From an uncultured Myxococcales bacterium (lineage in GTDB: Bacteria > Myxococcota_A > Polyangia > Polyangiales > Polyangiaceae), in assembly GCA_937902985.1 (NCBI GenBank), contig CALFNG010000192.1, positions 1 to 46,104 on the forward strand: a stretch of DNA of 46,104 nucleotides, given 5' to 3'. Each line of letters begins with the position of its first letter. Positions within the stretch are counted from its first letter, which is position 1. Position numbers and translations under genes: made by a program. Below are positions 1 through 40,360 of the stretch, in pieces. The notes below the pieces were generated by a model, which did not search any database, was not told the DNA's origin, and saw nothing but the letters and a program-made list of their open reading frames with translations.

Positions 1-56
1 GCCACGAATTCGCACGTTCCGCGTTCCCCCCTCAACCACTCCCCTGAACGGATACC

Positions 57-336
57 GTGTGAAGGGCGACATGAACAAGCCCGCATGTCGCTCCGCACAC
101 GTGGCAAGGGCGACATGAACAAGCCCGCATGTCGCTCCGCGCACGTGTGAAGGGCGACATGAACAAGCCCGCATGTCGCTCCGCACACGTGCGAAGAGCG
201 ACATGAACGAGCCCGCATGTCGCTCCGCACACGTGTGAAGGGCGACATGAACAAGCCCGCATGTCGCTCCACACACGTGGCAAGGGCGACATGAACAAGC
301 CCGCGTGTCGCTCCGCACACGTGTGAAGAGCGACAT
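57..336. repeat. 44-bp tandem repeat array, six full copies plus a partial one
   Basis: Six consecutive 44-bp units start at 57, 101, 145, 189, 233 and 277, and a truncated seventh starts at 321. Units differ by only a few bases. Each unit holds a dyad, GCGACATG - 10 nt - CATGTCGC, able to form an 8-bp stem, and most unit junctions form a second palindrome around CACGTG. More degenerate pieces of the same motif (cgacat ... tgtcgc) trail on to about 470. No coding signal is convincing here; the open frames that cross it are repetitive by construction. Confidence 0.93.
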
Positions 337-37479: not shown

Positions 37480-39711
37480 ATGGCCAAGAACATCCTCGTC
37501 ATCTCCTGCGACATCGCCGAAACGCGCGTCGCTCTCATCGAGAACGGCATCATCGCCGAGCTCCACATCGAGCGCCGCGGCGCGACGCCGCGCGGCGGCA
37601 CCGTCGGTGACATCTATCTAGGTCGGGTCACCCGGGTCCTGCCGGGCCTGCAGGCGGCCTTCATCGACATCGGGCTCGAGCGTGCGGCGTTCCTTCACGT
37701 CGAAGACCTCATTCGCCCCGACGACTTCGAGGCCTACCTGGCCGGCGGCCGCAAGCACGCGCTCGGCACCAGCGAGGGCGCTCAGGGATCGGCGCCCGAT
37801 GAGGGCGAGGTCCCTGCCCCGGCGGTCATCGTCGGGACGGTGACGCCCGAGGCCGAGAAAGACGCTGTGCACGAGGCCGCCGCCGAAGTCGTCGCCGACG
37901 AGCCAGACGATGGCGAAGAGGCCGACGACGCCGACGAGGCCGGCGAGAGAGAGACGCCCGCGCCTTTCGCGCGCGAACCGAGCGGCGAGCACGCGGTCCT
38001 CGAGGCCGCCGGGCTGACGTTCGGAGCCGGCGCCGGCGCCATCCCCAGCGCGGCTGGAAGCGGCGCCACCCTCGGGGCGCGCGCGGCGGCGGAAGAAGAG
38101 GCGATCGAAGAGGCCGAAGAAGAAGAGGCCGAGCTCGAGGACGCGGCGGCGTCAGCGGACGCGATGGCCGTCACCTCGACCCGCCTCGACGACCCCGACA
38201 GCGACCCGCCGCCCCCGCCGGTTCCTGGCGACATCGACGACCTCCTCGACAACCCGAATCTCCCGGGGTTCACCATCAGCGATCCGGGCAGCCCGACGCC
38301 TCGCGCGCCGGCGCCGCGGGTCGACGAGCGTCGCGACGGCGGTCGTTCCGGCGACAAGTGGCAACGCGGACGAGGCCGGGGCCGAGGCCGCGGGCGCGCG
38401 CCGGGGGGCGGAGGCGGAGGCCAGGGAGGCGCGGGCGGCCCTCACGGGCAGAGCCGCGACCATCGGTCGCGCACGAGCGGCGTCGCCGGCCGACTGTCGA
38501 AGTCGACGCCGATTCGCGACGTCGTCAAGGAGGGTCAGGAGATCATCGTCCAGATCACCAAGGAGCCGATCGGCACGAAGGGCGCCCGCTGTTCGAGCCA
38601 CGTGTCGCTGCCCGGCCGTTACGTCGTGTACCTGCCGACGCTCGAGCACATCGGCGTCAGCAAGCGCATCGGCAGCGACAAGGAGCGGGCGCGCCTCCGC
38701 GAGACGATCGAGAGCATGAAGCCTCCGGCCGGGGGTCTCATCGTGCGCACGGTGGCCGAAGGCCTCACCAAGAAGCAGCTGAAGCAAGACGTCGGCTACC
38801 TCGTGCGCCTCTGGGGCGAGGTCGCGAAGAAGCACGAGGGCGCGAGGGCCCCAGCCACGCTCCTCAGTGAGCTCGACATCGTGCTCAAGACGGCGCGCGA
38901 TCTCTTCACCGACGACGTCGATCAGATCGTGATCGACGACCGCGCCCAATACGAGCGCACCTGCCGCTTCGTCGAGATGTTCATGCCCGAGCGGCTGAAG
39001 GACATCCTCTACTACAACGACGACGAGCCCATCTTCGACGCGTACGGCATCGAAGACGAGATCGCGCGCGCCCTCTCACGCAAGGTGCCGCTGCCGAGCG
39101 GCGGGTACCTCATTCTCGACGAGGCCGAGGCGCTGACGGCCGTCGACGTGAACACCGGCCGCTTCGTGGGGAAGGGCAGCAAGGACATGGAGGAGACGAT
39201 CCTCAAGACGAACCTCGAGGCGGTTCACGAGATCGCCTACCAGCTGCGCTTCCGCAACATCGGGGGGCTCATCATCCTCGACCTCATCGACATGGAGAAG
39301 GCGTCGAACCGCGAGAAGGTTCGAAAGACGCTCGACGAGCTGCTCCAGAAAGACAAGGCCAAGACCACGCTCAATCGCATCTCGGAGCTCGGGCTCATCG
39401 AGATGACGCGCAAGCGAACGCGCGAGAGCCTCGGCCGGCTGATGCACGAGCCCTGCTTCTACTGCGACGGCACGGGCCACCTGATGTCGAAAGAGACGGT
39501 GTGCTTCGACATCTTGCGGGAGATCCGGCGCAAGCGTCAGGATCTTCCGGGCTACAGCATCCTCGTCAACTGCCACCCGGCCGTTGCCGACCTGCTGACC
39601 GGCAGCGAGAAGGCCGCTGTGCAAGACGCGGAGAGCAAGTTCATGCGCCGCATCCAGGTGACCGCTCGAACCGAGTACCATCTCGAGCAGTTCGACCTCT
39701 CTGGCCACTGA
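37480..39711 (+). CDS. rng: Ribonuclease E/G with disordered insert in the S1 domain
   Basis: This 743-residue protein has the RNase E/G catalytic core: N-terminal start MAKNILVISCDIAETRVALIE, S1 first half (GDIYLGRVTRVLPGLQAAFIDIGLERAAFLHVEDL, to about 77), S1 second half from about 343 (EGQEIIVQITKEPIGTKGARCSSHVSLPGRYVVYLP), DNase-like domain with metal-binding Asp556 (VDVNTGR) and Asp601 (LDLIDM), and the zinc-link Cys659/Cys662. Between the two S1 halves sits an insert of about 265 residues: Glu/Ala-rich, then Pro-rich, then an Arg-Gly-rich tract (RGRGRGRGR). There is no C-terminal degradosome tail. It should cut AU-rich single-stranded RNA and process rRNA. ATG 37480 matches the family start. 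Confidence 0.95.
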   Translation: MAKNILVISCDIAETRVALIENGIIAELHIERRGATPRGGTVGDIYLGRVTRVLPGLQAAFIDIGLERAAFLHVEDLIRPDDFEAYLAGGRKHALGTSEGAQGSAPDEGEVPAPAVIVGTVTPEAEKDAVHEAAAEVVADEPDDGEEADDADEAGERETPAPFAREPSGEHAVLEAAGLTFGAGAGAIPSAAGSGATLGARAAAEEEAIEEAEEEEAELEDAAASADAMAVTSTRLDDPDSDPPPPPVPGDIDDLLDNPNLPGFTISDPGSPTPRAPAPRVDERRDGGRSGDKWQRGRGRGRGRGRAPGGGGGGQGGAGGPHGQSRDHRSRTSGVAGRLSKSTPIRDVVKEGQEIIVQITKEPIGTKGARCSSHVSLPGRYVVYLPTLEHIGVSKRIGSDKERARLRETIESMKPPAGGLIVRTVAEGLTKKQLKQDVGYLVRLWGEVAKKHEGARAPATLLSELDIVLKTARDLFTDDVDQIVIDDRAQYERTCRFVEMFMPERLKDILYYNDDEPIFDAYGIEDEIARALSRKVPLPSGGYLILDEAEALTAVDVNTGRFVGKGSKDMEETILKTNLEAVHEIAYQLRFRNIGGLIILDLIDMEKASNREKVRKTLDELLQKDKAKTTLNRISELGLIEMTRKRTRESLGRLMHEPCFYCDGTGHLMSKETVCFDILREIRRKRQDLPGYSILVNCHPAVADLLTGSEKAAVQDAESKFMRRIQVTARTEYHLEQFDLSGH

Positions 39712-39764: not shown

Positions 39765-40100
39765 ATGAGCGATTCCGACAAGCGTGGGGACGAACGCGTC
39801 ACCATCAACAAAGAGTTCGAGTCGTTCGACGCGTTCATCCAGGAATACGTCACGAACATCTCGCGAACCGGCGTCTTCATCAAATCGCAGCAGCCGCTGC
39901 CGATCGGCACGCGCGTGAACCTGCGCTTCACCGTGATCATGGACGACATCGAGACGATCGAAGGCATTGGCGAAGTCGTGCGCGTCGAGACGAGCCCGGC
40001 CGGGATGGGCGTCGTCTTCCGCGAGCTCTCGACGTACTCCAAGGGTCTCATCGAGAAGTTGCTCGTGCAGACCAGCCCCCTGGTTCCCCTCGCGCCGTAG
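39765..40100 (+). CDS. PilZ domain protein
   Basis: This 111-residue single-domain protein fits the PilZ type common in myxobacteria: an N-terminal Arg region (DKRGDERVTINKEF), the N-x-S-x-x-G box (NISRTGVFIKS), and a closing GMGVVF strand. The RxxxR c-di-GMP motif is imperfect, so binding is uncertain. GAGGAGA precedes ATG 39765. The gap to the RNase E/G gene is 53 bases with no terminator, and contains TCTGGTAGAGCGAG twice in direct order (about 39727-39757), so both genes may be on one transcript. Confidence 0.88.
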   Translation: MSDSDKRGDERVTINKEFESFDAFIQEYVTNISRTGVFIKSQQPLPIGTRVNLRFTVIMDDIETIEGIGEVVRVETSPAGMGVVFRELSTYSKGLIEKLLVQTSPLVPLAP

Positions 40101-40216
40101 TCGGCGGTTCCGAGCGGGGGGTCCCGAGGCGTAACGAACGGCTCATCCCGTGCGGTGGCCGTTGACACGCTGCAGGGTAAGGGCATGTTCCCTGGTTGAA
40201 TCCCCCGCCTGAAACC

Positions 40217-40360
40217 CACGCTTGAACCCACGCTTGAACCCACGCTTGAGCCCACGCTTGAACCCACGCTTGAACCCACGCTTGAACCCACGCTTGAGCC
40301 CACGCTTGAGCCCACGCTTGAGCCCACGCTTGAACCCACGCTTGTACACACGCTTGAACC
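40217..40360. repeat. 12-bp tandem repeat upstream of the superoxide dismutase gene
   Basis: Twelve perfect-length units of CACGCTTGARCC run from 40217 to 40360. Units 3, 7, 8 and 9 have G at the variable position, unit 11 ends TACA, the others read CACGCTTGAACC. The array ends 22 bases before the sod start codon and so lies in the leader or promoter. Read on the minus strand it would give Lys-Arg-Gly-Phe repeats, which I regard as a by-product of the DNA repeat. Confidence 0.95.

What the first reader, a model, noticed from the sequence alone, without database searches (positions are those of the whole stretch)
37711..38505. Disordered insert of about 265 residues inside the S1 domain of RNase E/G
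The S1 RNA-binding fold is cut between LHVEDL and TPIRDVV by an acidic, then Pro-rich, then Arg-Gly-rich segment. In Proteobacteria the disordered part of RNase E is C-terminal and drives degradosome assembly and condensates; here the C-terminus ends at the core. Moving the disordered, RNA-binding part into the S1 loop would be a different solution to the same need.
Basis: partly seen in the sequence, partly recalled or inferred. Interest (0 to 1): 0.65.

Follow-up and report, generated by a model that had tools for sequence, protein, structure and literature searches.

The report
Disordered insert splitting RNase E's S1
In one family of soil-dwelling myxobacteria (Polyangiaceae), the main RNA-cutting enzyme carries its long floppy scaffold inside its RNA-gripping domain and has nothing past the core at its end, where E. 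coli keeps its scaffold; smaller inserts at the same spot were already known in alpha-proteobacteria and plants.

Summary
The only RNase E/G of this genome (window 37480-39711, 743 aa) has its S1 domain split by 268 residues between the RNA-contact residues equivalent to E. coli F67 and K112. AlphaFold2 gives the core pLDDT 92-98 and most of the insert under 50, and the protein ends at the core. It is no artefact: all 63 distinct complete Polyangiaceae sequences, including closed genomes, have it (56-460 aa, median 290). Sister families of the same order have 28-95 aa, and the rest of the phylum 15-49. On the core tree it is one clade. The acidic-then-basic/RG layout is kept although the sequence is not. 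Two short motifs arose inside it: LPGFT(I/V)(T/S)DP in the window's clade (21/21) and LPTALDV in the Sorangium clade (10/10).

A disordered, charged S1 insertion at this place is already described for alpha-proteobacteria and plants (Voss 2014); Caulobacter's is structured in part and lies in the fragment that binds RhlB. What is new is the length, its being the only disordered region, the RG-rich end, and the motifs. Most likely it does the work of the C-terminal degradosome scaffold. RNA binding, partners and condensates are inferred. New variant of a known kind.

The parts
37480..39711 (+). rne/rng gene, 743 aa RNase E/G; the only PF10150 match in the genome
   Evidence: PF10150 E 3e-99, TIGR00757 473 bits over its cut-off; one match in own genome
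37606..37707 (+). first half of S1 domain (residues 43-76), holds F61 and F71 = E. coli F57 and F67
   Evidence: alignment to 2BX2; invariant columns
37708..37779 (+). insert start: conserved LIRPDDFEAYLAGGRK and predicted helix (helix residues 80-100)
   Evidence: 85% mean identity of the first 16 residues in the motif clade; pLDDT 91 then 76; omega 0.065
37756..38202 (+). acidic segment of the insert (residues 93-241, net charge -35)
   Evidence: contains an 18-bp tandem repeat at 37893-37946
38203..38334 (+). Pro-rich linker with the motif (residues 242-285)
38248..38307 (+). conserved short motif DNPNLPGFTISDPGSPTPRA (residues 257-276)
   Evidence: P-G-F-T in 21 of 21, mean identity 0.61 against 0.12-0.26 in the flanks; omega 0.14; once in genome; single origin on tree
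38335..38487 (+). Arg-Gly-rich segment (residues 286-336, RGRGRGRGRG, net +8)
38488..38511 (+). conserved exit of the insert, GRLSKSTP (residues 337-344)
   Evidence: 78% mean identity in the motif clade; R338 nearly invariant
38512..39708 (+). second half of S1, 5'-sensor, DNase I-like catalytic domain, Zn-link, small domain; no C-terminal extension
   Evidence: PF10150 376-647, PF20833 658-740; tail 1 aa

Best explanation
The insert is the noncatalytic scaffold region of this RNase E, located in the S1 loop instead of the C-terminus. SHOWN: it is an enlarged, rapidly evolving but selected S1 loop, predicted disordered, with a conserved helix at its entry, an acidic body, a Pro-rich/motif linker and an RG-rich end, kept across a whole family that has no C-terminal tail. 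INFERRED: the RG-rich end, which re-enters the S1 fold 23 residues before K367 (= E. coli K112), holds RNA near the 5'-sensor/S1 channel; the acidic body competes with RNA for that basic site or for the RG part, gating the enzyme and promoting electrostatic clustering; clade-specific motifs (LPGFTITDP, LPTALDV) are binding sites for partner proteins such as PNPase or a DEAD-box helicase.
For: Same site as the Caulobacter insertion, which lies in the RhlB-binding fragment and reaches the RNA site. Insert kept in 63/63 complete sequences, no C-tail in any. One clade, SH-aLRT 96. Acidic first part in 64/64, basic last part in 60/64, RG dipeptides concentrated in the last third. Omega 0.18-0.46, below 1, with motif and helix near core constraint (0.14 and 0.065). 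Two single-clade motifs far above shuffles, the way microdomains evolve in the C-terminal region of gamma-proteobacterial RNase E (PMC4435900). All S1, 5'-sensor, catalytic and Zn-link residues invariant. PNPase and DEAD-box proteins are encoded in the genome.
Against: No binding, condensation or activity data. Three of five clades tested show no conserved motif, so a partner is not universal. The either/or pattern of S1 insert and C-tail rests on few evolutionary events (insert 1 change, tail 3), and an alpha-like sequence, L076, has both. The motif region has only slightly raised pLDDT (45-55).
Confidence: 0.5

Rival explanations
1. Autoregulatory gate only: the acidic body acts as an RNA mimic that blocks the S1/5'-sensor channel until displaced, with no scaffold role.
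For: Caulobacter's insert helix protrudes into the RNA site and its acidic side chains were proposed to mimic RNA; the insert here lies between F71 and K367 (= F67 and K112); acidic body and entry helix are the most general features.
Against: Gating would not need 120-460 residues, an RG-rich end or clade-specific motifs.
Confidence: 0.2
2. Mostly neutral expansion: replication slippage in GC-rich repeats lengthens a tolerated loop; the insert has little function.
For: Length 56-460 aa, low identity, omega ~10 times that of the core, tandem repeats in the acidic part (repeats also in L011, L024, L035).
Against: Never lost in 63 sequences; charge order kept in 60/64; omega below 1; two motifs and the entry helix strongly kept.
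Confidence: 0.18
3. Helicase dock: the insert mainly recruits a DEAD-box helicase next to the active site, as in the Caulobacter RhlB-binding fragment.
For: Position equals that of the Caulobacter insertion; RhlB binds fragment 1-274 holding it; two strong DEAD-box matches (E about 1e-48) in this genome.
Against: No sequence similarity between the two inserts was found; binding not tested; most clades lack a shared motif.
Confidence: 0.12

Closest known systems
S1-domain insertion of alpha-proteobacterial RNase E (Caulobacter crescentus, PDB 4OXP; Voss et al. 2014, PMC4245959)
   Same: Same place in the S1 fold; charged; predicted disordered; variable in length and sequence between species
   Different: Reported as ~50-150 aa (about 75 in 4OXP by my anchors) and, in Caulobacter, accompanied by a long C-terminal disordered region; here 56-460 aa, the only disordered region, acidic-to-RG layout, own motifs, separate origin (relatives lack it)
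Plant chloroplast RNase E S1 insertion (cited in PMC4245959)
   Same: Same site; its deletion in Arabidopsis reduced activity, according to that paper
   Different: Different lineage; composition not compared here
C-terminal noncatalytic region of gamma-proteobacterial RNase E with microdomains (PMC4435900)
   Same: Disordered, compositionally two-part, rich in tandem repeats, with short motifs gained once per clade and Arg-rich RNA-binding parts
   Different: C-terminal, not inside S1
Wolbachia RNase E (PMC5436854)
   Same: S1 insertion (~50 aa) in a short protein of 591 aa, close to RNase G in net length
   Different: Far shorter insertion
C-tailed RNase E/G of other families in this phylum (e.g. 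L161, L159, L173)
   Same: Same core; low-complexity charged extension of 90 aa or more
   Different: The extension is C-terminal and the S1 loop is short

Membership tests
RNase E/G family | PF10150 / TIGR00757 catalytic core | tested here: met
   E 3e-99; 473 bits over the cut-off of 326
RNase E/G family | Metal site D303, N305, D346; Zn-link C404, C407; 5'-sensor R169, T170; S1 F57, F67, K112 (E. coli numbers) | tested here: met
   D556, N558, D601, C659, C662, R423, T424, F61, F71, K367 align and are invariant in 84 sequences; functional roles recalled
RNase E proper (E. coli type) | Large C-terminal noncatalytic region | tested here: not met
   Tail 1 aa; best NCBIfam equivalog is ribonuclease G but under its cut-off (500.6 against 594)
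Alpha-proteobacterial/plant type S1 insertion | Located at the same S1 loop | tested here: met
   Residues 1-88 match 4OXP chain 21-104 and 327-464 match 149-288; 4OXP found by fold, TMt 0.81
Alpha-proteobacterial/plant type S1 insertion | Charged, predicted disordered | tested here: met
Alpha-proteobacterial/plant type S1 insertion | Length ~50-150 aa | tested here: not met
   268 here, median 290 in the family; alpha-like L076 reaches 251
Alpha-proteobacterial/plant type S1 insertion | Common descent | tested here: not met
   Sister families and the rest of the phylum have 15-95 aa loops; the insert is one clade inside the phylum
Alpha-proteobacterial/plant type S1 insertion | RhlB binds the fragment carrying it (Caulobacter) | not testable with these tools
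   needs binding assay
BR-body-forming RNase E | Disordered region drives condensates | not testable with these tools
   charge segregation only

The most novel reading that the evidence does not exclude
Polyangiaceae build a degradosome whose whole scaffold projects from the RNA-binding groove of the nuclease: partners dock on new motifs (LPGFTITDP, LPTALDV) and the acidic/RG halves switch the channel between closed and RNA-loaded or condensed states.
Probability: 0.25. Interest if true: 0.65.

Novelty: new variant of a known kind. Interest (0 to 1): 0.42.

Why it matters
It gives a natural case in which the disordered scaffold of RNase E sits only in the S1 loop, beside relatives of the same phylum that carry it only at the C-terminus. 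That separates what the scaffold does from where it is attached, and makes the unexplained S1 insertion of alpha-proteobacteria and plants testable in a protein where no second disordered region confuses the result. The two clade-specific motifs are ready-made bait for finding the first myxobacterial degradosome partners.

Tried and rejected
Assembly artefact or frameshift: rejected, since closed Sorangium and Minicystis genomes have the insert in frame. Insert as mobile element or separate domain: Pfam and NCBIfam show no domain in it. Motif repeated elsewhere in the genome as a general interaction tag: only chance-level hits (E 4.75 and worse). Motif conserved in all clades: no, only in the window's clade and a different one in the Sorangium clade. 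Significance of the S1-insert-or-C-tail alternation: too few events to claim. Paper searches found nothing on myxobacterial RNase E inserts, RGG in RNase E, or PilZ with RNase E in the open-access set.

Full report
OBSERVATION. The open frame 37480-39711 (+) codes 743 aa with MAKNILVISCD at its start. It is RNase E/G: PF10150 at residues 376-647 (E 3e-99), the RNase E/G thioredoxin-like domain at 658-740, TIGR00757 over its cut-off, and it is the only PF10150 match in the genome, whose window is contig 192 of an 8.3-Mb, 563-contig assembly. Alignment with E. coli RNase E 2BX2 breaks into two pieces, query 3-91 and 344-715, where E. coli has no gap. The 268 residues between the S1a and S1b anchors (77-344) therefore interrupt the S1 fold. 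From the alignment, F61, F71, K367, R423, T424, D556, N558, D601, C659 and C662 correspond to E. coli F57, F67, K112, R169, T170, D303, N305, D346, C404 and C407; all are invariant in 84 homologues. The insert thus leaves after the strand that carries F67 and returns before K112, i.e. between RNA-contact residues (their roles recalled from the E. coli structures).

STRUCTURE. AlphaFold2 on an 84-sequence alignment (mean pLDDT 78) gives the core blocks 92-98, and nearly all residues 106-237 and 261-327 under 50. A helix at 80-100 (pLDDT 91 falling to 76) continues out of the S1 domain; residues 241-260, just before and into the motif, are slightly raised (55, 52) with a short helix 252-257. The best PDB match by fold is E. 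coli RNase E; the Caulobacter S1/5'-sensor structure 4OXP aligns with TM 0.81 by its own length. The long disordered part makes whole-chain rmsd meaningless.

DISTRIBUTION. Loci were taken from genome contigs, from 60 genomes of the same family and from a phylum sample of 190, with fetched stretches. S1 loop and C-tail were measured by HMM anchors. In family f1, which is Polyangiaceae (Sorangium, Minicystis, Byssovorax; contig of G039 has the length of CP016211), all 63 distinct complete sequences have loops of 56-460 aa (median 290) and tails of about 1 aa. Twelve further sequences are cut by the contig end; eleven of these already show insert residues there and the twelfth begins inside the core. 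Sister families of the same order have 28-95 aa. Other sampled members of the phylum have 15-49 aa, and 33 of these 85 rows have a C-tail of 90 aa or more. Gamma/beta-proteobacterial loci have 16-19 aa with tails mostly 250-650. On a core tree (insert excluded) the insert group is one side of a branch (SH-aLRT 96), 1 change; the shortest inserts (56, 108, 110 aa) form its first branch, which suggests growth of the ~30-aa loop. Tails need 3 changes, so the alternation between insert and tail rests on few events. L076, whose C-terminus ends in KKRGWWRRLIE, like the PNPase-binding GWW motif of Caulobacter (recalled), has both a 251-aa insert and a 321-aa tail, so the two are compatible. Four of the 60 family genomes gave no PF10150 match at all, among them the one other genome of the same genus; these are draft assemblies and absence was not followed up.

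WHAT IS CONSERVED. Across 64 distinct inserts the first 65% is net acidic in 64 and the last 35% net basic in 60; the contrast exceeds 500 shuffles at p<0.01 in 60. RG dipeptides have a median of 4.5 in the last third and 1 before. The short loops of relatives often show the same order in miniature (57 of 87), so the layout is probably older than the expansion. Between close species the insert has omega 0.18-0.46 and in-frame indels, against 0-0.07 in the core (Nei-Gojobori estimates on GC-rich codons, so approximate). Inside it lie strongly kept islands: the entry LIRPDDFEAYLAGGRK, the exit RISKSTP, and in the window's clade the motif D..(D/N)(L/M)PGFT(I/V)(T/S)DP..P.P(R/K)A. P-G-F-T is in 21 of 21 sequences, mean identity 0.61 over 19 positions against 0.12-0.26 in neighbouring stretches; omega 0.14 with 49 synonymous changes in 160 codons, so the constraint is on protein; one origin on the tree, support 100. 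It occurs once in this genome. The Sorangium clade has instead LPTALDV (10 of 10); three other clades show little or nothing beyond shuffles.

PRIOR KNOWLEDGE. Voss et al. 2014 (PMC4245959) state that the main deviation in the RNase E catalytic domain is a diverse, charged, disorder-predicted insertion of ~50-150 aa in S1 of alpha-proteobacteria and plants; that in Caulobacter it is partly helical and protrudes into the predicted RNA site; that RhlB binds the fragment with it; and that deletion in Arabidopsis impairs activity. A ~50-aa S1 insertion in Wolbachia RNase E is called typical of alpha-proteobacteria (PMC5436854). Microdomains gained once per clade within a repeat-rich disordered region are described for the C-terminal region of gamma-proteobacterial RNase E (PMC4435900). 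I found no open-access paper on the Polyangiaceae case; subscription papers are not held.

MECHANISM. Best reading (0.5): the S1 loop has become the noncatalytic scaffold. Shown: position, disorder prediction, family-wide retention, charge order, motifs, selection. Inferred: RNA holding by the RG end beside the S1/5'-sensor channel, competition by the acidic body, partner docking at the motifs, clustering. Rivals are a pure autoregulatory gate (0.2), mostly neutral slippage (0.18) and a helicase dock in the Caulobacter manner (0.12).

VERDICT. Real, family-defining, not an artefact; a longer, RG-bearing and exclusive version of a known kind of insertion, with two new candidate binding motifs. 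Interest 0.42.

Noticed in passing
window 39765-40100 (+): A PilZ-domain gene (PF07238, E 9e-11; RxxxR and NxSxxG both present by eye) follows rne directly; a same-strand homologue follows rne in 113 loci across the phylum (median gap 18 bp). It suggests a c-di-GMP receptor tied to RNase E.
   Followed up: partly
L076: Alpha-like RNase E (C-terminus KKRGWWRRLIE) with a 251-aa acidic, His-rich S1 insert as well as a 321-aa C-tail, longer than the 50-150 aa reported for such inserts.
   Followed up: partly
L195, L200: The motif is doubled in tandem (DLPGFTV(S/T)EDLPGFTVGDD), as expected if short repeats seed binding motifs.
   Followed up: no
window 40196-40360: 12-bp repeat, 13.6 copies (TTGAACCCACGC), between the PilZ gene and a superoxide dismutase-like gene.
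   Followed up: no
window 56-336: 44-bp tandem repeat, 6.4 copies, 91% matches.
   Followed up: no
L202-L208: Several genomes of the phylum carry a second RNase E/G with a 15-22-aa S1 loop and a 146-243-aa tail (all but L206), closer to the proteobacterial RNase E layout.
   Followed up: no
L002: A contig labelled Nannocystis exedens (MAG) groups with Polyangiaceae RNase E and carries the insert and motif; the label is probably wrong.
   Followed up: no
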